Positions 5,485 through 25,605 of a DNA stretch of 64,000 nt are shown here, piece by piece. Made by a program: the position numbers and the translations under genes. A model generated the notes under the pieces. That model ran no database searches, was not told the DNA's origin, and saw nothing but the letters and a program-made list of their open reading frames with translations. This DNA is from Chloroflexota bacterium (GTDB lineage Bacteria > Chloroflexota > Dormibacteria > Dormibacterales > Dormibacteraceae), in the NCBI GenBank assembly GCA_005880695.1, contig VBGR01000061.1:1-64000 (forward strand), written 5' to 3'. The stretch's first letter is position 1. Every line of letters begins with the position of its first letter.

Positions 5485-6912
5485 ATGGATTCATCAACAC
5501 TTATCGTCCTCGCCCTCCTCGTCTGCATCGTCCTGCTGGTGGCGGTCGGTGTCCTCTACCTGCTCGAGAATGGGAAGAATCGCCGGCTCCGGGCGGCCAT
5601 GCCTCCGCCCTCGGCTTCCATGGGCGTCCCGAGCGCACCAGTGGCTCGGACAGCCGCCGTGCCCAGCTCGGGTCCCGGCCAGCCGCCGCCTCCGGCCTGG
5701 ATGAATCCCGCTCCCGCGGCGGCCCCGCCGCCGCCCGCGACGCAAACGCTCGACCCGTCGGTGCCGACCTGGGCGCCGCCCCCGCCGGCGCAGCCGACCC
5801 GCGTCCCGCCCCCGGCGCCCTCCGTTCCAGCGGCAGAGCCCGCTTCGCCCGCGGCTGCCGAGCCAGCCGCCCCGGCAACGCCCAGCTGGGAGGTGCCCAA
5901 GGCAGCCGAGCCGACAGTCCCCAGCGGGTGGGAGCCCGCCCCTCCCGAAGCGGCCCCTCCGACGCCGAGCTGGGAGGCCCCCAAGTCGCCAGAACCGGCG
6001 CCGGGCGCAGCGAGTACCGAGCCGCCGCTCCCGGCTGCAGCGCCTTCCGAGCCGGCTGTCCCCACCTGGGAGTCACCGGCCGCCCCAGCTCCGCCCGAGC
6101 CTGGCGCTGCGCCTGAGGAGCCGAAAGCCCCAGCCCCAGCCGCCGAGGAGCCTGCTCCGATGGAAACGTCCGCCCAGGGCGAAACGATGCCGATCCCTGC
6201 CTGGAGTCCGCCCGCCTCGGGCGATCAGGCCCCGCCTGCGGCAGAGGCTGCGGCAGAGGCCCCGGCCGCCCCCGCCTGGGAGCAGCCGGCGGAGACGCCG
6301 CCACCCGCCGAACCCTTGCCGACCGACTCGGCTCCCACCCTGGTCTGGCAGCCGCCCGCAGCGGGCGAGTCTGGCGCGCCGGGCGAGGCGCCAGCCGCTC
6401 CAGCTCCGGGCTGGGAGACGCCTGCCACGGAGGCTCCCGCGGACGTGCCGGGCGAGACCCCCGCGGCGTCTCCCTGGGAAGTCCCGGCATCCGCGGCTGA
6501 GCCGGCTGCGCCCGAGGCCCCGCCGGCGGAGGTGCCGCCGCTCGACCGCACGGTGTTTGTCGACTCCACCCAGGTCGGAGGCGCCGGCGAGCACGACACA
6601 GCCGGCCTGCCCACCCTTGTGGAGGCCGAGCTGGTCGTCGCCTCCGGCCCCGACAGCGGGCATACCTACCGCCTGACCGGACCCTCGCTCCGGATCGGCA
6701 GGGCCCCCGACAACGACCTGGTGCTACGCGACCCGGCAACTTCGGGCCACCACGCTCGGGTCGAGCGGCGAGGGAACAGCTTCTTCGTCGTGGACCTCGG
6801 CAGCACCAACGGGACCCTGGTCAACGGCGACGTGGTCCAGGAGCGCGAGCTGACGGACGGCGACAGCATCACGATCGGCCAGAACGCGGTGAACTTCGCC
6901 CTCAGGAAGTAG
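5485..6912 (+). CDS. Membrane-anchored FHA-domain protein with a long Pro/Ala linker carrying W-x-x-P repeats
   Basis: 475 aa. An N-terminal transmembrane helix (about 5-28) is followed by a roughly 330-residue Ala/Pro-rich linker and a C-terminal forkhead-associated domain (about 385-472). The FHA core is intact: LRIGRAPDNDLVL, the phosphothreonine-binding SGHHARV, and LGSTNGTLVNG. FHA domains bind phosphothreonine peptides, which fits the adjacent PP2C phosphatase (29 nt downstream) and the Ser/Thr kinase at 43.8 kb. The linker contains about ten tryptophan motifs such as PSWEVP, PSWEAP and PAWEQP. Confidence 0.85.
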   Translation: MDSSTLIVLALLVCIVLLVAVGVLYLLENGKNRRLRAAMPPPSASMGVPSAPVARTAAVPSSGPGQPPPPAWMNPAPAAAPPPPATQTLDPSVPTWAPPPPAQPTRVPPPAPSVPAAEPASPAAAEPAAPATPSWEVPKAAEPTVPSGWEPAPPEAAPPTPSWEAPKSPEPAPGAASTEPPLPAAAPSEPAVPTWESPAAPAPPEPGAAPEEPKAPAPAAEEPAPMETSAQGETMPIPAWSPPASGDQAPPAAEAAAEAPAAPAWEQPAETPPPAEPLPTDSAPTLVWQPPAAGESGAPGEAPAAPAPGWETPATEAPADVPGETPAASPWEVPASAAEPAAPEAPPAEVPPLDRTVFVDSTQVGGAGEHDTAGLPTLVEAELVVASGPDSGHTYRLTGPSLRIGRAPDNDLVLRDPATSGHHARVERRGNSFFVVDLGSTNGTLVNGDVVQERELTDGDSITIGQNAVNFALRK

Positions 6913-6941
6913 GTGGACGGAAACGCCGTTTCCGTCCTCTG

Positions 6942-7667
6942 ATGGGGCTCCGGTTGGCCTGGCTCTCGGATCCGGGGATCCACCGGCAGAACAACGAGGA
7001 CTACATCGCGGTCAGGACAGAGCTGAAGTCCTCCGACGCTGTGATCGTGATCGCCGACGGGATGGGCGGCCACGCCTCCGGCCAGGTCGCGAGCAAGCTG
7101 GTCGCGGACACAATCGTCGACGAGGTGGCGGCCCTCGACAAGCTCGATGGCGAACGCCTGCATGACGTGCTGGCCAAGGCCAACACCGCCGTCTACGAAG
7201 CTGCCCAGAGCAGCGCCGAGCACACCGGCATGGGCACCACGGTGGTGCTTGTCGCGATCCGCCACGGCCGCGCAACCACGCTCAACGTTGGCGACAGCCC
7301 CGCCTACCTGATCCGGTCCGGCGAGATCAGCGACATCTACCAGAACCACTCCTGGCCGGCCGAGCAGGCGCGCGCCGGGATCATCACGGCCGACCAGGTC
7401 GCCGGCCACCCGATGAAGCACCGGCTGGCCCGAGCAGTCGGGGTCTGGGACCAGGTCAAGGCTTACATGACGCAGGTCGACCTTCAGCTGGGCGACTTGA
7501 TAGTCCTCTGCAGCGATGGGGTCGAGGGCGCGGGAGTGTCCGTCGACGAGATCCGCGACAACCTCGACCAAGAGGATCTGCAGGTCGCGGTCGAGCAGTT
7601 GATCGCACTTTGCGTCGACCGCGGCGCACCTGACAACGTGTCGGTTGCGGTGGCGCGCGTCGAGTAA
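6942..7667 (+). CDS. PP2C-family Ser/Thr protein phosphatase
   Basis: 241-aa cytosolic metal-dependent phosphatase. Metal-ligand motifs are NNEDY (16-20), IADGMGGH, CSDGV and the terminal GAPDNVS, all as expected for bacterial PP2C (PstP/Stp-like). It lacks the membrane tail of mycobacterial PstP. The gene follows the FHA protein by 29 nt, so the two probably form a phospho-signalling pair. It would reverse phosphorylation by Hanks-type kinases such as the one at 43787-44731. Confidence 0.92.
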   Translation: MGLRLAWLSDPGIHRQNNEDYIAVRTELKSSDAVIVIADGMGGHASGQVASKLVADTIVDEVAALDKLDGERLHDVLAKANTAVYEAAQSSAEHTGMGTTVVLVAIRHGRATTLNVGDSPAYLIRSGEISDIYQNHSWPAEQARAGIITADQVAGHPMKHRLARAVGVWDQVKAYMTQVDLQLGDLIVLCSDGVEGAGVSVDEIRDNLDQEDLQVAVEQLIALCVDRGAPDNVSVAVARVE

Positions 7668-7691
7668 GCCCGGCCCGGGGAGCCCGCCGAC

Positions 7692-8912
7692 TCAGAAGTA
7701 GGCTTCGGCGATCAACTCGGCGGCGTGCCTGACGGGAATGTCGCTCCGGCCGCGTGCCTTGAGACCGGCTTCGAGCTGCATCTGGCAGCCGGGGTTGGCG
7801 GTGACCACCTGCTCGGGAGAGACGGAGAGCACCGAGTCCATCTTCTCCTCCAGGATCCGGCGCGACATCTCCGGCTCCAGCGCGCTGTAGAGGCCGGCCG
7901 AGCCGCAGCAGATGTCCGCGTGCGGCATCTCGACCAGCTCGACGCCCGGAACCGACTGCAGGAGCTCGCGGGGCTGCCGCGTGATCCGCTGTGCGTGAGC
8001 CAGGTGGCAGGGGTCCTGGTAAGTCACCCGGGCCCTGACCTCCTGCCTGGGCGGTGGCATGCCCACCTCGGCCAGGAACTCGAAAAGGTCGCGCGTCCGT
8101 TCGCCAACCCCGCTGTAGAAGTCTTTGAGATGCGACGAGCAGCCGGCCGAGTTGACGACCAGGAAGTCGTAGTCATCGCCGGCGAAGACGCGCTCGTTGT
8201 GGTCGCGCAACCCGCGCGCAGACTTCAAGTCGCCGTTATGTGCGAAGAGGGCGCCGCAGCAGCGCTGGGCGGCGGGAAAGTGGACCTCGCAGCCCGCCAC
8301 CTGGAGGAGACGGACCGAGGCTTCGTGTGAGCGCGCGTACATGATCGGCATGACGCAGCCGGTGAGAAAAGCCACTTTGAAGCGCATCGGACCGAGGGCG
8401 CGCGCCACGTTACCGGCCGGCGGCGCGAATGGCTCGCTCAGCTTCGGCAGCTGGCGGCCCTGGGCGGAGAGCGAGGTGAGCCCGGTTGCTTGGGCGAGGC
8501 GCGTCAAGGCGCCGACCGCGCGCAGGCGTCCCGGATGCTTGAGGACCTGACGCATCACGATCGTCGCCGTCGTGCGCTTGGCATCGACCTTGCGGACACG
8601 CTCCAGCTCGGCGCGCCCGTGCTCGATGATCCGGCCATACGGCACGCCGCTGGGACAGACCGCCTCGCACGTCCGGCAGCCGAGGCAGAGGTCCAGGTGC
8701 CGGGCGAGGTCGCGGGTGAACGGCAGCCCGCCTCGGGTCCACTGCGTCATCAGGTAGAGGCGGCCGCGGGGCGACTCGGTCTCCAGTCCGGTCACGCGGT
8801 ACGTCGGGCAGTAGTTGAGGCAGAGTCCGCAGTGCACGCAGGTGGCGAGGTCGTCGTCGCTGGGCGCGTCCGGACCGTGGAAGACGGCGGCCCGCCGGAC
8901 GTCAATTGCCAT
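7692..8912 (-). CDS. glcF: Glycolate oxidase iron-sulfur subunit
   Basis: 406 aa. Two [4Fe-4S] motifs near the N-terminus (CVHCGLCLNYCP and CLGCRTCEAVCP) are followed by two CCG-type domains with CCGALFAH and CCGSAGLYS. This is the electron-transfer subunit that passes electrons from glycolate oxidation, carried out by GlcD/GlcE, to the respiratory chain. It is the last gene of the minus-strand glcD-glcE-glcF operon, separated from glcE by about 100 nt that contain a hairpin. A lactate-utilisation role is an alternative, but the three-subunit order is that of glycolate oxidase. Confidence 0.9.
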   Translation of the reverse strand: MAIDVRRAAVFHGPDAPSDDDLATCVHCGLCLNYCPTYRVTGLETESPRGRLYLMTQWTRGGLPFTRDLARHLDLCLGCRTCEAVCPSGVPYGRIIEHGRAELERVRKVDAKRTTATIVMRQVLKHPGRLRAVGALTRLAQATGLTSLSAQGRQLPKLSEPFAPPAGNVARALGPMRFKVAFLTGCVMPIMYARSHEASVRLLQVAGCEVHFPAAQRCCGALFAHNGDLKSARGLRDHNERVFAGDDYDFLVVNSAGCSSHLKDFYSGVGERTRDLFEFLAEVGMPPPRQEVRARVTYQDPCHLAHAQRITRQPRELLQSVPGVELVEMPHADICCGSAGLYSALEPEMSRRILEEKMDSVLSVSPEQVVTANPGCQMQLEAGLKARGRSDIPVRHAAELIAEAYF

Positions 8913-15246: not shown

Positions 15247-15607
15247 TCGGCAGCCGACTGAGTTCCGACCCGCACTTCGGATTCGAAAGCGGATCGCTTG
15301 CGAAAGCGCCAGCGTGCCTCCTATCATCAGCGGTATCACCAGGTGGGGAGCGTTCTCGGCGGGGAAACGGGTGTGTCACATCGCGGGGTAGTCTGCTATC
15401 TGCGGTCACCTATTTCGGTGCAATCGCCATCTCGGCCACTGACGCGGTCTTCCGAACCGAATGAGGGCGACGACTAGCTAGGCAGACGGTTTGGGGTAGC
15501 GGAGGGGCCGGCTCTTCACCGGCCCCTTTGCATTTCAGCGCAGCGGCACCGCCAACCAACGGAGCGACCGGTCGCCTAAGCTGAGCGGCCACAGGGGAAG
15601 GACAAGG
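15247..15607. other. 361-nt gene-free stretch before the MFS operon
   Basis: No supported gene is seen. The stretch holds a strong terminator-like hairpin (15504-15526) and the ribosome site GGGGAAGG at 15594-15601 of the following MFS gene. I recognise no known RNA family in the rest. Confidence 0.5.
15504..15529 (+). terminator. Rho-independent-like terminator
   Basis: GGGGCCGG at 15504-15511 pairs perfectly with CCGGCCCC at 15519-15526 around a 7-nt loop and is followed by TTT. The position suits termination of the VOC/SnoaL transcript before the MFS operon. The T-tract is short. Confidence 0.6.
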
Positions 15608-17200
15608 CTGACTTACAAGCGCTGGATTCTCGTCGCCGCCGTGCTCGGGTCAGGGATCGTCTTCCTCGACTCGACGGTGGTCAACGTCGCTCTGCCCCGC
15701 ATCGGCCACGACCTTCCGCGCCTCTTCCTCGGCGTCCTCGAGGGTCAGTCCTACGTCTACAACGCCTACCTGCTGACGCTGAGCGCGCTCCTGATCCTTG
15801 CCGGCGCGCTCAACGACTTCTACGGACGCAAGCGCATGTTCATGTTCGGCCTGGTCGGCTTCGGAGTCACCTCGGTGCTCTGCGGGCTGGCGCCGAACAT
15901 GGAGCTGCTCGTGCTCTTCCGGGTGCTCCAGGGCGCCGCCGGAGCGCTGCTGGTGCCGGGATCGCTGGCGCTCCTCACGGCCAACTTCGAAGGCGAAGAG
16001 CAAGGCCGGGCCTTCGGCATCTGGGCGGGAGCGTCGGCCGCAACCACCATCCTCGGCCCGGTCGTGGGCGGCTTCCTCGTCGACAGCCTTTCCTGGCGGG
16101 CGGCCTTCCTGATCAACATCCCGCTCGTGGCGATCGGCCTTTGGGCCACCTATGTCCACGTGCCCGAGAGCCGCGACGAGCAGGCTTCGAATAAGTTCGA
16201 CTGGCTGGGCGCCGCGGTGGTCGGCCTGGCGGTTGGTGGCCTTGCTTTCGGAGCCATCTACGGACAGCAGCGAGAGTGGCGCGACCCGGCCGGATTCGTG
16301 GCGATCGGGATCGGCCTGCTGGCCACCATCGCCCTGCCCGTCCTGATGGCGAGCTCGTCGCACCCGCTGATCCCGCTGCACCTCTTCAAGAGCCGCAATT
16401 TCACGGTCACCAACATCTCAACCCTGCTGATCTATGGGGCCCTCTACGTCTTCAGCTACTACCAGGCGCTCTTCATGCAGGGGACGCTTGGCTATACGGC
16501 GGCGGCGGCGGGTGCGGCCGGCATCCCCGGGACGCTCTTCCTGGTCTTCTTCTCTTCGCGGTTCGGCAGCCTGGCCGCGCGCTACGGGCCGCGTTGGTTC
16601 ATGGCCGCCGGACCCGCGGTCATGCTGCTGGGGGTGCTCTGGATGATCCGCGTACCGCCCACCAGCGTGCCCTGGCACCTGCGCCCGGCCGACCCCACGA
16701 CCTTCCTGCCGCCGGCGTCCTATTTCACCGACTTCCTGCCTGCCAACATCCTCTTCGGACTCGGAATCATGGTGCTGGTGGCGCCCCTGACGACCGCCCT
16801 CATGACCTCCATCCCGGTCCGCAACTCGGGCGTCGGCTCGGCCATCAACAACGCCATCTCCCGGGTCGGGCCGCAACTGGCGGGCGCCCTGATCTTCGTC
16901 TTCATCACGGCCGACTTCTACCGCTTCCTGGCCGGGCGGCTGAGCGGCGTGGACGTCAGCTCAGCCGGCTTTCACGCCAGGGTCAGCCCACTCAACACGC
17001 CGCCCGATCCAGGCCTGGTCGGCGTGGTCCGGGAGGCATCGACGGAGTCGTTTCATATAGCCATGCTGGTAGTGGCAATCCTCTTCCTGCTGGGAGCCCT
17101 CGTGAACGCGGCCGGCATCCGCAACGAGGCCGCCAAGACGCCGGCCGCTGAATCATCCCCGGAGGCCGAACCAACCTCGCTCCAACCGGAGGCGAACTGA
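15608..17200 (+). CDS. MFS drug:H+ antiporter-2 (EmrB/QacA-type, 14 TM), apparent CTG start
   Basis: 530-aa membrane transporter with about 14 helices. TM1 contains LDSTVVNVALP (DHA2 signature) and motif A is ALNDFYGRKR. The frame has a stop at 15497 and no ATG, GTG or TTG until GTG 15641, which would cut TM1 in half. CTG 15608 sits 6 nt after GGGGAAGG and gives the natural start TYKRWILVAAV. The cNMP-fold gene follows 3 nt after the stop, so the transporter probably belongs to that operon. Substrate unknown. Confidence 0.9.
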   Translation: MTYKRWILVAAVLGSGIVFLDSTVVNVALPRIGHDLPRLFLGVLEGQSYVYNAYLLTLSALLILAGALNDFYGRKRMFMFGLVGFGVTSVLCGLAPNMELLVLFRVLQGAAGALLVPGSLALLTANFEGEEQGRAFGIWAGASAATTILGPVVGGFLVDSLSWRAAFLINIPLVAIGLWATYVHVPESRDEQASNKFDWLGAAVVGLAVGGLAFGAIYGQQREWRDPAGFVAIGIGLLATIALPVLMASSSHPLIPLHLFKSRNFTVTNISTLLIYGALYVFSYYQALFMQGTLGYTAAAAGAAGIPGTLFLVFFSSRFGSLAARYGPRWFMAAGPAVMLLGVLWMIRVPPTSVPWHLRPADPTTFLPPASYFTDFLPANILFGLGIMVLVAPLTTALMTSIPVRNSGVGSAINNAISRVGPQLAGALIFVFITADFYRFLAGRLSGVDVSSAGFHARVSPLNTPPDPGLVGVVREASTESFHIAMLVVAILFLLGALVNAAGIRNEAAKTPAAESSPEAEPTSLQPEAN

Positions 17201-17203
17201 CAG

Positions 17204-17629
17204 GTGGACGTGCGCGACGATGTCACCGAACTCCTCGCGGGCTTCTCGCTTTTTGCTGACCTTTCCAGCGCGGAGCGGGAACGGGTCGCCCACACCTTCA
17301 AGGAAGCGTGGTTTGCGGAAGGTGAACGCATCCTTCGCCAGGGCATCAGCGGTGGTTCGGCCTTCTACGTGATCCTGGAGGGCAGCGCCGGCATCCGCGT
17401 CGACGGGGTCGAGCGCTGGTCGCTCAAGCCCGGGGAGTTCTTCGGCGAGATTTCCTCTCTGCTCGGCGAGGTCGCGGTGGCGGACATCATGGCGCTGACG
17501 CCGCTGCGCTGCCTGGTTCTGGATGGCGACCAGCTCGAATCGTTCCTCGTCTCGCACCCGAAAGTCATGTATCGAGTGCTCCAGGGCGAGGCTCGCAAGG
17601 TGCGCAACACGACCCAGTGGCAGAACTGA
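17204..17629 (+). CDS. Stand-alone cyclic-nucleotide-binding-fold (Crp-type) protein
   Basis: 141-aa cupin-like cNMP-binding domain: LFADLSSAERERVAHTF, ILRQGISGGSAFYVILEGSAGI, and the phosphate-cassette region FFGEISSLLGE. The usual Arg-Ser/Thr-Ala after the cassette reads VAVADI, so the phosphate-binding arginine is absent and ligand binding may be lost or altered. There is no DNA-binding domain. The next gene starts 13 nt before its stop, so tight coupling to the FAD oxidoreductase is expected. GTG start. Confidence 0.85.
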   Translation: MDVRDDVTELLAGFSLFADLSSAERERVAHTFKEAWFAEGERILRQGISGGSAFYVILEGSAGIRVDGVERWSLKPGEFFGEISSLLGEVAVADIMALTPLRCLVLDGDQLESFLVSHPKVMYRVLQGEARKVRNTTQWQN

Positions 17630-19143
17630 GCGAAGGGCCCTTCCCGCCGGGTAGATACGAGCTGATCGTGGTCGGGAGCGGCCCGGGCGCCCTCCAGCTC
17701 ACTTACTGCCTGACCCGGCTCGGCCTCGACCACGCAGTCATCTCGGATGACCCGGCGCCGGGCGGAATGTTCCGGCGCTGGCCCATCTTCCAGCGGATGC
17801 TGAGCTGGACCAAGCCGTATGCCGGCTTCGAGCACCGCTCGCGCGAGTACGAGCGTTTCGACTGGAACAGCCTCGCCTGCGACGAAGAGGAGCACCGCGC
17901 GGTGATGGCCGAGGTGATGGATGGGACCTCTTACTTCCCGTCGCGTCCCGAGATGGAGCGCGGCCTGGTCATCTTCGCTGAGCGGGCCGGCCTCCAGGTC
18001 CGCTATGGCTGCAGGTGGGAGAGCACAGGCAGGGAAGGCCAGGATTTCATCCTCGGGACGTCCGACGGTGAGTACCGAGCGCCGCTCCTGGTCTTCGCGG
18101 TCGGTGTCGCAGAGCCCTGGAAGCCGTCGACGCCCGGGCTCGAGGACGCAGCCCACTACGGCGACCTGCGTCCGGTCGAGACGTACGCCGACCGGCGTGT
18201 TTTCATCATCGGCAAGCAGAACTCGGGCTTCGAGATCGCCACTGGCCTGCTCCCGGTCGCCCGCCAGATAGTCCTCGCCTCGCCCAGCCCGACCAAGCTC
18301 TCCGTCAACACACGGTCGCTGGTCGGAGTCCGAGCCCGCTATGTCCAGCCTTACGAAGACTCGGTGCTCGCCGGCGGAGTCGTCATCCTGGACGCCTCGA
18401 TCGAGTCGGTCGAACCGGCCGGAGCGGCCTTCAGGGTCACCACCCGGAACGCCCACGACGGCAGCGCGCTCGTCTTCGAAGTCGACGACGTGATCGCGGC
18501 GACCGGCTTCGTCGCGCCTTTGCGCGACCTGCCCGAGCTCGGCGTCGCAACCTTCGGTCACAGCCGGCTGCCCGCGCAGACGCCTTTTTGGCGCAGCGCG
18601 ACGGTGCCCGGGATCTACTTCGCGGGGACGCTGACGCAGGGCTCGCTCGGCCTCCGTAAGCACGGCATCCCAAGCAACTCCGGAGCCGTCCAGGGATACC
18701 GCTACAACGCTCGGGTCCTGGCCCGCCACCTCGCTCAAACGCGGTTCAACAGGGACCTGGAGCGTCCGCGGCTGGGAACGGATCAGGTGATACCGCTCCT
18801 TCTCGCCGAGGTCAGCCGCGGTCCGGAGCTCTGGCACCAGCGCTCGTACCTCGCGCGCGTCCTCACCATCGACGCTGAACAAGGCCTGGGCGACGAAGGC
18901 GTGCTGCCGCTCGCGCATTTCGTCGACGACGACCGCGGGCCGGACGGCGTGGCGATCGCCCTCGAGTCAAACGGGCGCGACGAGCCGTACCCTGCCGTCT
19001 ATATCAGGCGCGCCAACAAGGTGAGCGAGCACCTCCTGCCGTCGCATCCATTGCTCGACTTCGAGGGCGCCGGTTACGTGAGCGAGCTGGCCGCGCAGCT
19101 GGGCGAACTGCTCAGTCCAAGCCTGTCGAGGCCGGTCCCATGA
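17617..19143 (+). CDS. FAD-dependent oxidoreductase (flavin monooxygenase / thioredoxin reductase-like)
   Basis: 508 aa. FAD-binding Rossmann motif GSGPGALQ at about 21-28, then PAPGGMFRRWP, and a second dinucleotide-binding motif in VFIIGKQNSGFEIA (Gly-Lys-Gln-Asn-Ser-Gly in place of GxGxSG). An ATGF-like stretch AATGFVAP follows. No redox CxxC is seen, so it is closer to flavin monooxygenase-like proteins than to classical thioredoxin reductase. It overlaps the cNMP-fold gene by 13 nt and the cyclase-NTPase gene by ATGA. Confidence 0.82.
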   Translation: MAELSEGPFPPGRYELIVVGSGPGALQLTYCLTRLGLDHAVISDDPAPGGMFRRWPIFQRMLSWTKPYAGFEHRSREYERFDWNSLACDEEEHRAVMAEVMDGTSYFPSRPEMERGLVIFAERAGLQVRYGCRWESTGREGQDFILGTSDGEYRAPLLVFAVGVAEPWKPSTPGLEDAAHYGDLRPVETYADRRVFIIGKQNSGFEIATGLLPVARQIVLASPSPTKLSVNTRSLVGVRARYVQPYEDSVLAGGVVILDASIESVEPAGAAFRVTTRNAHDGSALVFEVDDVIAATGFVAPLRDLPELGVATFGHSRLPAQTPFWRSATVPGIYFAGTLTQGSLGLRKHGIPSNSGAVQGYRYNARVLARHLAQTRFNRDLERPRLGTDQVIPLLLAEVSRGPELWHQRSYLARVLTIDAEQGLGDEGVLPLAHFVDDDRGPDGVAIALESNGRDEPYPAVYIRRANKVSEHLLPSHPLLDFEGAGYVSELAAQLGELLSPSLSRPVP

Positions 19144-21785
19144 GCCTCCCGAGCGGCACGCTCACGTTCCTCTTCACCGACATCGAGGGCTCGACCCGCC
19201 TCATGCAGGAGGTGGGCGACCGCTACGTAGAAGCGCAGGCAGCGCACCACGCGATCCTGCGGGAGGCCTTTCGGAACAACTCCGGCCGGGAGTTGCGAAC
19301 CGAGGGCGACTCCTTCTTCTGCGTGTTCGCCAGCGCCCTCGACGCCTGCTCCGCGGCGGCTGCGGCCCAGAAGGCGCTGGCCGCGCAGGCCTGGCCCGAG
19401 GGAGCTGCGATCCGCGTCCGCATCGGCCTCCACACCGGGGAGGCGCCGCTCGTCGGCAACGAGTACATCGGCCTCGACGTGCACCACGCTGCCCGGGTGG
19501 CGGGCGCCGCTCACGGCGGCCAGGTCCTGCTCTCGGAGTCGACGCACGCGCTCGTGCAGGACAACCTGCCCGCAGGCATCAGGCTGCGTGACCTCGGCCT
19601 GCACCGGCTGAAGGACCTGGCCCGATCCGAGCGGCTCTTCCAGCTGGTGGTCGCAAGCCTGCCCGACAGTTTTCCGGCACTCCGCACGCTCGACACCACT
19701 CCGAACAACCTGCCCACGCAGCTGACAAGCTTCATCGGCCGCGAGCCGGAGGTCGAGTCCGCTGGGGCCCTGCTCAAGGGTGCCCGGCTGCTGACGCTGA
19801 CCGGCCCGGGCGGGATCGGCAAGACCAGGCTCAGCCTGCAGATCGCCGCCGACCTGATCCAGCAGTTCCCCGATGGCGTCTATTTCATCCCGCTGTCCGC
19901 GGTGCGCGAACCGGGCTTGGTGGCCTCGGTGATCGCCGAGGTGCTCGGCGTCGCCGTCACCGGTAGCCGGCTCTCGATCGACGCCGTGGTGGAGTACCTG
20001 CGCGACAGGAAAGTGCTCCTCGTGCTGGACAACTTCGAGCAGCTCCTGCCTGAGGGCGCGCCGGTCGCGACTCAGCTGCTCAAGGGGAGCCCGGGACTGA
20101 AGCTCCTGGTCAGCAGCCGGGCGGTCCTCCGCGTCTACGGCGAGCAGGAGTTCGCGGTCGAGCCTCTGCGCCTACCCGACCTCAAGGCACTCCCGGCGCT
20201 GGCGGCACTCTCTCAATACGAGGCGGTCAGGCTGTTCATCGAGCGGGCGGTGGCAGCCAAGCCGGACTTTCGAGCCACCAACGAGAACGCTCCGGCGATC
20301 GCCGGAGTCTGCGAGCGGGTGGATGGCCTGCCGCTGGCCATCGAGCTGGCGGCGGCCCGCGTCAAGCTCTTCTCGCCGCAGGCGCTACTGGGGAGGCTGG
20401 AGTCGAGCCTCACCGTGCTTGGCACCGGCAGCCGTGACTTGCCCGGCCGGCAACAGACTCTGCAAGCTGCGATCGCCTGGAGCTACGACCTCCTGGACCC
20501 GCCGCTGCAGCGGCTCCTGGCGCGGTTCGCCGTCTTCGCCCGGGGCGGGAACCTGGAGCAGGCGGAGCTCGTCTGCGGGCCAGCCGCCGAGGTCGGTGTC
20601 GACGTGCTGACGGGGCTGGACGAGCTGGCGGACCAGAGCCTGCTGAGGCGCCTGCCGGACTTCGAAGAACCGCGGCTCCTGATGCTGCAGACGATCAGGG
20701 AATTCGCGCTGGAGCGGCTCCAGCAAGGCGGCGAGGGCGACCTGGTCAGGGACCGACACGCGGCTGCCTTCCATGCGCTCGCCGAAGAGGCGGCGCCGCG
20801 CGTGTTCGGCGAGCAGCAGAAGACCTGGCTCGACCGTCTGGAACGCGACCATGACAACTTCAGGGCAGCAATGGACTGGTGCGTCGAGCGCGCCGATGCC
20901 GAGCGCGGCCTCTGCTTGGGGGCAGCCTTATGGCGCTTCTGGCAGATGCGGGGACACCTGCACGAGGGCCGGGCGCGGCTCGAGGCCGTGCTGGCGCTGG
21001 CAGGGGCTCACGACCATCCCAAGGAGCGGCGGCGAGCGCTCGAAGCGGCCGGTGGGATCGCCTACTGGCAGGGAGACATGCCCGCTGCCCAGGCGTTCTA
21101 CGACGAGTGCCTCGCGTCGACGCGGGAGGGCGGCACCAGGGCCGAGCTCGCCAACGCGATTTACAACGTTTCCTTCCCGAGAATGGTGAACAGGCAAGAT
21201 CTGGCGCGCGCAGCCCAGCTCCTCACGGAGGCTCTGCCGATCTTCCGGGAAGTGGGCGACGAGGCCGGACTCGGGCGCTGTCTCTGGGGGCTTGGCAACG
21301 CTGACTACTTCGCCGCTCGCTATCCGGACGCCATCGCACACCTGGACGAGGCCATCGAGCTCTTTCGGCGCCTGGACGACCGCTTCAGCCTTGGTTGGGC
21401 GCTGCACACCCGAGCCCTGGTCGCTCTGAAGTATCTGGATTGGGCGGCTGCGGACGCCTTCGTTGTCGAAGCCCTGGAGATTTTCTCGGCGGCAAGCGAC
21501 GTGTCCGGGATAGTCCTCCTCCTCGACGACGCGGCGGCAGTGGCACGGGTCAAGGGTGAACCCCGCCGCCAGATTCGCCTGGCCGCGGCGGCCACCGCCC
21601 ACCAGGCCGCAAGCGGCGCCGGGCTGGGCGCGATCCTCAAGGCCGAAGAGGAATGGACACTCCGCGAAGCGCTGACCAGCGAAGAAGATAAACGCGCCTG
21701 GGCGGAGGGTCAGGCGATGAGCCTGGAGGAGGCGGTTGCCTATGCCCTTGGCAGGAGCGATTCAGAGGTGGAGGCGCGGACCTGA
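19140..21785 (+). CDS. Class III cyclase domain - NB-ARC-like ATPase - TPR regulator
   Basis: 881 aa. Residues about 1-170 form a class III nucleotidyl cyclase homology domain (TFLFTDIEGSTRL with the metal Asp; LRTEGDSFF with the second Asp). The purine-specifying Lys of the KTxGD motif is Arg, and in VHHAARVAG the usual Asn is His while Arg is kept, so activity is uncertain. An STAND-type ATPase follows with Walker A TGPGGIGKTR and Walker B VLLVLDNFEQ, then TPR-like helices to the end. No LuxR HTH is present. It is coupled by ATGA to the FAD oxidoreductase. Confidence 0.88.
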   Translation: MSLPSGTLTFLFTDIEGSTRLMQEVGDRYVEAQAAHHAILREAFRNNSGRELRTEGDSFFCVFASALDACSAAAAAQKALAAQAWPEGAAIRVRIGLHTGEAPLVGNEYIGLDVHHAARVAGAAHGGQVLLSESTHALVQDNLPAGIRLRDLGLHRLKDLARSERLFQLVVASLPDSFPALRTLDTTPNNLPTQLTSFIGREPEVESAGALLKGARLLTLTGPGGIGKTRLSLQIAADLIQQFPDGVYFIPLSAVREPGLVASVIAEVLGVAVTGSRLSIDAVVEYLRDRKVLLVLDNFEQLLPEGAPVATQLLKGSPGLKLLVSSRAVLRVYGEQEFAVEPLRLPDLKALPALAALSQYEAVRLFIERAVAAKPDFRATNENAPAIAGVCERVDGLPLAIELAAARVKLFSPQALLGRLESSLTVLGTGSRDLPGRQQTLQAAIAWSYDLLDPPLQRLLARFAVFARGGNLEQAELVCGPAAEVGVDVLTGLDELADQSLLRRLPDFEEPRLLMLQTIREFALERLQQGGEGDLVRDRHAAAFHALAEEAAPRVFGEQQKTWLDRLERDHDNFRAAMDWCVERADAERGLCLGAALWRFWQMRGHLHEGRARLEAVLALAGAHDHPKERRRALEAAGGIAYWQGDMPAAQAFYDECLASTREGGTRAELANAIYNVSFPRMVNRQDLARAAQLLTEALPIFREVGDEAGLGRCLWGLGNADYFAARYPDAIAHLDEAIELFRRLDDRFSLGWALHTRALVALKYLDWAAADAFVVEALEIFSAASDVSGIVLLLDDAAAVARVKGEPRRQIRLAAAATAHQAASGAGLGAILKAEEEWTLREALTSEEDKRAWAEGQAMSLEEAVAYALGRSDSEVEART

Positions 21786-21786
21786 C

Positions 21787-22059
21787 ATGGCGACCCGGCT
21801 CTGCTCACACCTGCTCGCCGCGGGCGACGCTGAGCCAAAAACGCCCGACGGCTGCGAAGAGTGCCTGGCGATGGGCGACGGCTGGGTCCACCTCCGGCTC
21901 TGCACCGACTGCGGGCATGTCGGCTGCTGCAATGACTCCAAGAACAAACACGCAACGCGGCACTTTCTCAGCAGCGAACATCCGGTGATCAGGTCTTTCG
22001 AGCCGGGTGAGCGGTGGCTCTTCTGCTACCCGGACGACCTCTTCTACGACCCGGAGTAG
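21787..22059 (+). CDS. UBP-type zinc finger protein
   Basis: 90 aa, essentially one ZnF-UBP domain: CSHL, CEECLAMGDGWVHLRLCTDCGHVGCC, HATRHF, HPVIRSF and GERWLFCYPDDLFY. The Cys/His ligand order matches the eukaryotic ubiquitin-C-terminus-binding finger. The start is 1 nt after the cyclase-NTPase stop, so it is the last gene of the cassette. The bacterial function is unestablished; it could bind a Gly-Gly-like C-terminus or act as a redox-linked adaptor. Confidence 0.9.
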   Translation: MATRLCSHLLAAGDAEPKTPDGCEECLAMGDGWVHLRLCTDCGHVGCCNDSKNKHATRHFLSSEHPVIRSFEPGERWLFCYPDDLFYDPE

Positions 22060-24474: not shown

Positions 24475-25605
24475 ATGGAATTGGTTGCATCGCCACTGCT
24501 TCCCGAAGGATTCAAAGTGCCGAGCTCGCGCTGGGAGCACGGCAGCACCAGGCTCCGCCGCCTGCTGGCCGAGAAGCCGTATGTCTTTGGACCCGGCTGC
24601 TACGACCCGCACAGCGCCCAGCTGGTCATGTACTACGGCTTCGACGCCGTCTACTTCAGCGGCTACTCCTTTGCGATCGGCCACCTCGGCACCACCGACA
24701 TGGACCTCTACTCCAGCGTCGAGATCGCCGACGGCGTACGCCGCACGATCATGGCGCTGCGCAAGTTTCAGCTCACGATGGCGACCGGCGATCCCGAGAA
24801 GGGGGATAAGCCGAAGCACCTCGAGATCCCTCCGGTGGTCGCCGACATGGACGTCGGCTACGGGAACATGTTCAACGTCCAGCGGACCACGGAGCTCTAC
24901 GTCCAGACCGGCGTGGCGGCGGCCCACATCGAAGACCAGGTGATGCCCAAGCGCTGCGGGCACATCGCCGGCAAGGCGCTGGTCTCTGCCGACGAGATGG
25001 TCGGCAAGCTGCGCATGATGCGCCACGTCGCGGAGGACTGCGGCAACCGCGATTTCATCATCATCGCGCGCACCGACGGAGTCTCCGCGGTTGACGCGCC
25101 CGAGACCAAGCGCGGGCTCGAGCTCGCCATCGACCGCGGCCTGCGCTACCTCGACAGCGGCTACCCCGACCTGCTCTGGTGCGAGTTCCCGACCGCGGCC
25201 AGGGGCCCCGTCGAGGAGTTCCACGAGGCGATCCGCAAGCGGTTCCCCGATGCCCGCTTCGGCTTCAACTACTCCTCCTCCTTCAAGTGGCAGAACGAGA
25301 AGAACCCGCTCACCTTCGACGAGCTGGGACAGATGGGCGTCGGCTTTCTCTTCATCACGCTCGCCATGCAGCATGCGGCCGGCTACGGGATGAGCAAGCT
25401 GCTGCAGGGCCTCAAGGAGCAGGAACAGGGCGGCTACATCGACTTCCAGCGCGAGGAGTGGGCCGAGGGCGAGGACCTGCCGACCAAGAGCCACCACCTC
25501 TTCACCGGCGTGCCCTACCACCACCTCGTCGGCGAGGCCTTCGCCGATGGCGGCCGCTTCGGCAAGAAGGTCGACCAGGGACTGCACCACGAGCACGTCG
25601 TCTGA
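24475..25605 (+). CDS. aceA: Isocitrate lyase family protein (short form)
   Basis: 376 aa of the isocitrate lyase/PEP mutase superfamily. The catalytic motif KRCGH is at 159-163 with Cys161, the metal-binding VADMDVGYGN at 122-131, and HIEDQ at 151-155, plus WCEFPT. It cleaves isocitrate to glyoxylate and succinate. At 376 aa it is shorter than typical bacterial AceA (about 430), so a methylisocitrate-lyase-like activity is a minor alternative, though KRCGH favours isocitrate. A LysR gene lies upstream; glyoxylate links to glcDEF. Confidence 0.85.
   Translation: MELVASPLLPEGFKVPSSRWEHGSTRLRRLLAEKPYVFGPGCYDPHSAQLVMYYGFDAVYFSGYSFAIGHLGTTDMDLYSSVEIADGVRRTIMALRKFQLTMATGDPEKGDKPKHLEIPPVVADMDVGYGNMFNVQRTTELYVQTGVAAAHIEDQVMPKRCGHIAGKALVSADEMVGKLRMMRHVAEDCGNRDFIIIARTDGVSAVDAPETKRGLELAIDRGLRYLDSGYPDLLWCEFPTAARGPVEEFHEAIRKRFPDARFGFNYSSSFKWQNEKNPLTFDELGQMGVGFLFITLAMQHAAGYGMSKLLQGLKEQEQGGYIDFQREEWAEGEDLPTKSHHLFTGVPYHHLVGEAFADGGRFGKKVDQGLHHEHVV

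What the first reader, a model, noticed from the sequence alone, without database searches (positions are those of the whole stretch)
15608..22059. Coupled MFS - cNMP-fold - FAD oxidoreductase - cyclase/STAND/TPR - ZnF-UBP cassette
Five genes lie within 3 nt of each other or overlap. They combine a second-messenger-like producer and sensor, a flavoenzyme, a STAND ATPase platform, a transporter and a bacterial UBP finger whose eukaryotic relatives read ubiquitin C-termini. The cyclase and cNMP folds both show altered key residues. It could be a redox-triggered conflict, stress or export system; the function is an inference.
Basis: partly seen in the sequence, partly recalled or inferred. Interest (0 to 1): 0.72.

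Follow-up and report, generated by a model that had tools for sequence, protein, structure and literature searches.

The report
Conserved cyclase–CNB–flavoenzyme gene cassette

Summary
Five same-strand genes (15608/15641–22059) overlap or lie within 3 nt: DHA2-type MFS, stand-alone CNB fold, FAD/NAD(P)H oxidoreductase, class III cyclase–STAND–TPR protein, ZnF-UBP. It is not a chance run. CNB lies directly upstream of the flavoenzyme in 77/77 distinct loci with enough sequence. The cyclase–STAND–TPR gene is within 5 kb in 26/33. The two families co-occur in genomes (33/36 versus 38/364). Flanking genes are kept only in the sister species, so the cassette is the unit. Orthologous CNB–flavoenzyme pairs occur in Actinomycetota, some beside cyclases of other architectures.

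The cyclase keeps both metal Asp and the transition-state Arg (62/62), so it is probably active. The flavoenzyme's CNB partner has lost the phosphate-binding Arg and carries an invariant Asp (77/77), so ordinary cAMP/cGMP binding is doubtful; a second CNB beside the cyclase in many relatives keeps the Arg. The flavoenzyme lacks CxxC (0/82). ZnF-UBP is optional and lacks the ubiquitin-tail Arg (0/41).

Best reading: a second-messenger-linked redox module with an exporter. The module is well supported; the signalling mechanism is inferred. Ubiquitin and phage-defence readings are not supported.

The parts
15608..17200 (+). DHA2/EmrB-like MFS transporter (CTG start at 15608 by homology; first common start GTG 15641)
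   Evidence: Pfam MFS_1 5.6e-44, best NCBIfam hit EmrB subfamily below its cut-off; orthologs beside the flavoenzyme in 27 loci
17204..17629 (+). Stand-alone CNB (cNMP-fold) protein, 141 aa; phosphate-binding Arg lost, invariant Asp94
   Evidence: Pfam 2.5e-14; model pLDDT 85 matching PKA/PKG/CRP CNB domains; 77/77 directly upstream of the flavoenzyme; residues
17617..19143 (+). FAD/NAD(P)H oxidoreductase of the two-dinucleotide-binding-domain type, 508 aa, no CxxC, extra C-terminal domain
   Evidence: Pyr_redox_3 2.9e-27; nearest folds Bdr/YpdA, TrxR-like, FMO; 0/82 with CxxC
19140..21785 (+). Class III cyclase (about aa 1-170) - STAND/NB-ARC ATPase - TPR protein, 881 aa
   Evidence: Pfam; catalytic, Walker A and Walker B residues; closest solved relatives Ma1120, LipJ; co-occurrence
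21787..22059 (+). ZnF-UBP protein, 90 aa; optional member of the cassette
   Evidence: zf-UBP 1.2e-13; bacterial NMR relative 2ida E 5.6e-28; Arg of CGR replaced in 41/41

Best explanation
A conserved operon-type signalling module. The STAND-TPR part of the 881-aa protein senses an unknown cue and controls its N-terminal class III cyclase domain, which makes a cyclic nucleotide. The small CNB protein, whose gene overlaps that of the flavoenzyme, is the enzyme's dedicated regulatory subunit and adjusts an NAD(P)H-dependent reaction without a redox-active disulphide (oxidase or monooxygenase type) in step with the cue. The MFS pump exports the product or the cue. ZnF-UBP is an accessory protein-contact module. 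Shown: gene anatomy, conservation of the module, residue patterns, folds. Inferred: the CNB-flavoenzyme complex, cyclase activity, that the signal is the cyclase product, and the reaction. The weakest step is signal transfer to the CNB, because its phosphate-binding Arg is gone; where a second, Arg-bearing CNB gene lies beside the cyclase, that protein is the likelier direct receptor. Confidence: functional module about 0.9; CNB as regulatory subunit about 0.7; gating by the cyclase product about 0.35.
For: CNB directly upstream of the flavoenzyme in 77/77 loci, 40 with the same 10-nt coding overlap; cyclase-STAND-TPR within 5 kb in 26/33. That family at E<=1e-160 in 33/36 flavoenzyme-positive genomes versus 38/364 others. 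Flanks not conserved outside the sister species. FAD-CYC and FAD-CNB distances correlate, r 0.76 and 0.79. In Actinomycetota the pair persists and some members lie beside other cyclase architectures: TPR-, abhydrolase-, kinase-AAA-TPR- and ferredoxin-cyclases; G582 has 5 cyclase domains in 3.0 Mb and two flank the pair. Cyclase metal Asp and transition-state Arg 62/62. Second CNB beside the cyclase keeps PRxA in 27/27 readable cases. Stand-alone CNB without DNA-binding domain.
Against: The flavoenzyme's CNB lacks the phosphate-binding Arg in 77/77 and has an invariant Asp there. The cyclase is not near the pair in 7/33 loci nor in the stretches read from G671, G498, G766 and G732. The cyclase-STAND-TPR family also occurs without the flavoenzyme (38 genomes). 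The co-occurrence counts are not corrected for phylogeny. No biochemical data.
Confidence: 0.5

Rival explanations
1. The CNB is a degenerate structural subunit or senses a non-nucleotide ligand; the cyclase-STAND-TPR protein acts through another receptor (a CRP-type factor or the second CNB). The cassette is then a regulated flavoenzyme plus exporter for detoxifying or modifying a small molecule.
For: Arg lost and Asp invariant in 77/77; the canonical PRxA CNB sits beside the cyclase instead; EmrB-like MFS orthologs beside the pair in 27 loci; the Rhodococcus CNB-TrxR-like fusion also lacks the Arg.
Against: The fold and Glu82 (76/77) are kept under strong constraint; cyclase linkage recurs with unrelated cyclase architectures.
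Confidence: 0.33
2. A Pycsar-like defence system: infection activates the STAND-cyclase, the messenger activates CNB-flavoenzyme, and redox-cofactor depletion or H2O2 halts the cell.
For: Cyclase plus CNB plus enzyme is the Pycsar layout (PMC11224242); the CNB matches the CNB part of PycTIR, 7e-7; patchy presence within a genus.
Against: No PADLOC match of the cyclase to PycC, none for the flavoenzyme; no TIR or TM effector; presence in whole families, and a long-conserved co-encoded exporter, do not suggest a rapidly exchanged defence island.
Confidence: 0.08
3. The ZnF-UBP reads Gly-Gly tails of a ubiquitin-like modifier and directs the module to modified proteins.
For: True zf-UBP domain; ThiS/MoaD-type Gly-Gly-tail family is in the genome; in Rhodococcus the finger lies in a chaperone/ClpB/thioredoxin operon beside a CNB-flavoprotein fusion.
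Against: The CGR Arg is Asp/Asn/Glu/Gly in 41/41; the finger is absent from most loci of the system and usually occurs without the flavoenzyme; no ubiquitin-family match in the genome, although that search's controls stayed silent too.
Confidence: 0.04

Closest known systems
CNB-domain-containing 'thioredoxin-disulfide reductase' with adjacent ZnF-UBP (Rhodococcus plasmids, e.g. NZ_CP142144.1)
   Same: CNB domain + FAD/NAD(P)H oxidoreductase + ZnF-UBP in adjacent or overlapping genes; CNB without the phosphate-binding Arg; no CxxC
   Different: There CNB and flavoprotein are fused, with a middle region and a separate Trx, in a chaperone operon without a cyclase; the flavoprotein is another branch of the superfamily
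Pycsar (PycC + PycTIR/PycTM)
   Same: Genetic linkage of a class III cyclase with a CNB-bearing component and an enzyme
   Different: No TIR/TM effector, no PycC match, CNB not fused to the enzyme, cyclase carries STAND-TPR
Mycobacterial Pat (CNB-gated acetyltransferase)
   Same: A CNB module attached to a metabolic enzyme; weak profile match of this CNB to Pat, 9.7e-6
   Different: Fused in Pat, separate protein here; different enzyme; canonical ligand site lost here (that Pat is cAMP-gated is from general knowledge)
STAND-cyclase regulators (cyclase-NB-ARC-TPR proteins, some with LuxR domain in actinobacteria)
   Same: Domain order cyclase-NB-ARC-TPR; a 38% identical relative elsewhere in the same genome
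   Different: This one is tied to a CNB-flavoenzyme pair and no HTH domain was found
YpdA/Bdr and bacterial flavin monooxygenases
   Same: Closest solved folds and sequence profiles
   Different: Bdr Cys replaced by invariant Gly, no CxxC, extra C-terminal domain, dedicated CNB partner

Membership tests
Class III nucleotide cyclase | Two metal-binding Asp and transition-state Arg | tested here: met
   D14, D57 and R119 in 62/62
Class III nucleotide cyclase | Transition-state Asn and canonical base-selecting Lys/Asp | tested here: inconclusive
   Asn is His in 44 and Asn in 17 of 62; Lys position Arg or Gly; Ma1120 is active without the Asn (PMC4215837)
STAND NTPase | NB-ARC/AAA match with Walker A and B | tested here: met
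   NB-ARC above cut-off; GPGGxGKTRL and LDNFEQ conserved
cAMP/cGMP-binding CNB domain | Glu and Arg of the phosphate-binding cassette | tested here: not met
   Glu 76/77, Arg 0/77, Asp94 77/77
Thioredoxin reductase | Redox-active CxxC | tested here: not met
   0/82
YpdA/Bdr bacillithiol disulphide reductase | Active-site Cys after GxGP (position from general knowledge) | tested here: not met
   GPG in place of GPC: G24 conserved; YpdA model 30 bits against a cut-off of 340
Ubiquitin-binding ZnF-UBP | zf-UBP fold with zinc ligands | tested here: met
   51.5 bits against 22.7; Cys/His ligands conserved
Ubiquitin-binding ZnF-UBP | Arg of the CGR motif that holds the ubiquitin C-terminus | tested here: not met
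   D33 N5 E2 G1 of 41
Pycsar | PycC-type cyclase | tested here: not met
   No PycC match of the cyclase in PADLOC
Pycsar | CNB fused to TIR or TM effector | tested here: not met
   CNB stands alone; no TIR/TM neighbour in the cassette
Second-messenger-gated enzyme | Cyclase product binds the CNB and changes enzyme activity | not testable with these tools
   Needs biochemistry

The most novel reading that the evidence does not exclude
An undescribed class of bacterial signalling module in which a STAND-controlled cyclase makes a messenger read by an Arg-less CNB with an unusual acidic pocket (hence a non-standard ligand), which switches a dedicated disulphide-free flavoenzyme: a redox effector to set beside the TIR and pore effectors of Pycsar.
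Probability: 0.2. Interest if true: 0.78.

Novelty: new variant of a known kind. Interest (0 to 1): 0.5.

Why it matters
It is a clean, testable unit: one flavoenzyme, one small CNB protein and usually one cyclase, held together in Chloroflexota (with Dormibacterota) and, in part, in Actinomycetota, where what the partner proteins share is the cyclase domain. If the CNB gates the flavoenzyme, it would add redox enzymes to the short list of directly messenger-gated bacterial enzymes and show what a CNB with Asp near its lost phosphate anchor binds. The association of ZnF-UBP with CNB–flavoprotein pairs in several arrangements gives a concrete handle on what bacterial ZnF-UBP domains do.

Tried and rejected
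Ubiquitin reading: the finger is optional and lacks the tail Arg; the PF00240 search was negative, but its controls were silent too. Thioredoxin reductase and Bdr assignment of the flavoenzyme: no CxxC, no Bdr Cys. Phage defence: PADLOC negative except for the CNB part. 'Cyclase is dead because Asn and Lys are changed': rejected as a conclusion, because metals and Arg are invariant and Ma1120 works without the Asn. Own-genome relatives of the cyclase protein (L205, L206): no flavoenzyme ortholog nearby. A distant flavoenzyme subfamily in other actinobacteria (216–247 bits) has no CNB neighbour, so the pairing belongs to the orthologous clade. A memory-only lead, that the flavoenzyme resembles eukaryotic ERFAD/FOXRED2 (an ER flavoprotein linked to protein degradation), could not be tested with the collections at hand. 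Literature searches found no description of this cassette; the library lacks most subscription papers, so prior description cannot be excluded. The promoter/terminator scan was uninformative. The genome-neighbour clustering merged CNB and cyclase genes into one cluster and was used only qualitatively (after CNB/cyclase and the flavoenzyme, MFS was the next most frequent neighbour).

Full report
Observation. The window (G000:C91) carries five + strand genes with overlaps or gaps of at most 3 nt: MFS 15608/15641–17200, CNB 17204–17629, FAD enzyme 17617–19143, cyclase–STAND–TPR 19140–21785, ZnF-UBP 21787–22059. Pfam confirms each family.

Is it more than chance? ZnF-UBP was sought in 201 related genomes (82 positive), then the flavoenzyme in 400 genomes of the phylum (36 positive), in GTDB contigs (65 loci, titled mostly Chloroflexi/Dormibacterota with a few Thermoleophilia) and in 396 genomes of the phylum of one Thermoleophilia locus (22 positive). 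After removing duplicates 82 loci remained from the first sets. In every locus with at least 600 nt upstream (77/77) a CNB gene is directly upstream on the same strand, 40 of them with an identical 10-nt coding overlap. The cyclase–STAND–TPR gene is within 5 kb in 26 of 33 loci with at least 5 kb on both sides, downstream in the Dormibacterota-type loci and divergent in most others. That protein at E ≤ 1e-160 is present in 33 of 36 flavoenzyme-positive genomes and 38 of 364 others (counted; not corrected for phylogeny). The window's genome has only three other relatives of it. In the genus labelled g9, G009, G023, G028, G030 and G031 have both proteins and G019 and G026 have neither. Pairwise distances correlate (r = 0.76 FAD–CYC, 0.79 FAD–CNB), which shared ancestry alone could also give. 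The genes right of the cassette are shared with the sister species L044/L134 and were not found beside the cassette in 12 other loci checked. The cassette is therefore the conserved unit. UBP lies in the cassette in the window, L037, L041, L042, L044 and L056, in front of CNB in L048 and L106, in front of CNB–FAD in L112, and is missing from most other loci.

Actinomycetota. The near orthologs keep CNB directly upstream (15 of 15 loci with a near ortholog; L187, L188, L193 and L194 likewise). Several have cyclase-domain genes nearby with other architectures: TPR–cyclase (L238, L239, L241), alpha/beta-hydrolase–cyclase and kinase–AAA–TPR–cyclase on either side of the pair (L242), ferredoxin–cyclase (L238); L239 also has the STAND form. 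Cyclase domains are few in some of these genomes: 5 in 3.0 Mb for G582, two of them flanking the pair. What these partners share is the cyclase domain, which points to the messenger as the link. Other members (G671, G498, G766, G732) show no cyclase in the stretch read, so the link is frequent, not universal.

Cyclase. Both metal Asp and the transition-state Arg are invariant in 62 sequences; the Asn is His in 44 and Asn in 17; the Lys position is Arg in 34 and Gly in 20. Arg there always goes with Glu/Asp at the second base-selecting site (34/34), Gly with Ser, Thr, Gly, Asp or Asn. The closest solved relative, Ma1120, has Ala at the Asn site and is an active adenylyl cyclase; putting Asn there sharply lowers or abolishes activity (PMC4215837). 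The domain is probably active; its substrate is open.

CNB. The fold is secure. Its cassette reads FGEISxLLGEPPxADIVA: Glu82 kept (76/77), the phosphate-binding Arg never present (Pro in 73/77), Asp94 invariant. Actinomycetota orthologs show the same pattern where the motif was read. A second CNB near the cyclase in many non-Dormibacterota loci keeps PRxA in 27 of 27 readable cases. So the CNB tied to the flavoenzyme is unlikely to bind cAMP in the textbook way, while a conventional reader exists beside the cyclase in those loci. The window's cassette has none.

Flavoenzyme. 508 aa; model pLDDT 81; nearest folds are TrxR-like proteins, YpdA/Bdr and flavin monooxygenases (TM-score about 0.5 by query length). 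There is no CxxC in 82 sequences, Gly where Bdr has Cys, GKQNSGFE where the superfamily usually has a GxGxxG/A nucleotide motif, and a C-terminal domain of about 120 aa. The reaction is unknown; an NAD(P)H oxidase or monooxygenase type is my inference.

ZnF-UBP. A bacterial family with a solved member (2ida). Zinc ligands are kept, but the CGR Arg is Asp/Asn/Glu/Gly in 41/41. It usually occurs without this system. It also accompanies a CNB–TrxR-like fusion in a DnaK–GrpE–J-protein–CbpM–ClpB–thioredoxin gene row on a Rhodococcus plasmid; that fusion also lacks CxxC and the CNB Arg. In Deinococcus it is the C-terminus of a cation:proton antiporter. Recurrent company with Arg-less CNB domains and CxxC-less flavoproteins is the one thread that gives the finger meaning here.

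Mechanism. I commit to a cue-controlled cyclase plus CNB-regulated flavoenzyme with an exporter: module about 0.9, CNB as the enzyme's regulatory subunit about 0.7, gating by the cyclase product about 0.35. The main rival keeps the module but denies that this CNB reads the cyclase product. Defence and ubiquitin readings are weak.

Novelty. Every domain is known. The fixed CNB–flavoenzyme pair with its cyclase, its spread, and the Arg-less, Asp-bearing CNB were not found described in the literature at hand. I rate it a new variant of a known kind (cyclic-nucleotide signalling modules).

Noticed in passing
L238:15317-16198 (+): A 294-aa reading frame joining a 4Fe-4S ferredoxin domain (Fer4_13) to a class III cyclase domain, about 6 kb from the CNB-flavoenzyme pair; a possible redox-linked cyclase.
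   Followed up: no
L242:10324-14646 (-) and 6627-7961 (-): Two further cyclase architectures flanking the pair: zinc ribbon-Ser/Thr kinase-AAA-TPR-cyclase (1441 aa) and alpha/beta-hydrolase-cyclase (LipJ-like).
   Followed up: partly
L199:1-7936: Rhodococcus plasmid gene row dnaK-grpE-J protein-cbpM-clpB-trxA-ZnF-UBP-CNB/TrxR-like fusion, a candidate disaggregase/redox operon; the 'thioredoxin reductase' has no CxxC.
   Followed up: partly
L200:4219-6252 (+): Deinococcus cation:proton antiporter with a ZnF-UBP domain at its C-terminus.
   Followed up: no
L246, L247, L249: Distant flavoenzyme relatives (about 216-250 bits) occur in pairs on opposite strands a few kb apart, without a CNB neighbour, in large actinobacterial genomes.
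   Followed up: no
L179, L180, L185, L186: Records titled 'Bauldia sp.' carry the Chloroflexota-type cassette at 52-61% identity; possibly mislabelled bins.
   Followed up: no
window 15498-15531: GC-rich inverted repeat ending in TTT just upstream of the cassette, seen by eye; possible terminator of the preceding gene, not flagged by the scan.
   Followed up: no
window 24475-25602 (+): Isocitrate lyase/PEP mutase family gene beside a LysR regulator; this right-hand block is shared with the sister species only.
   Followed up: no
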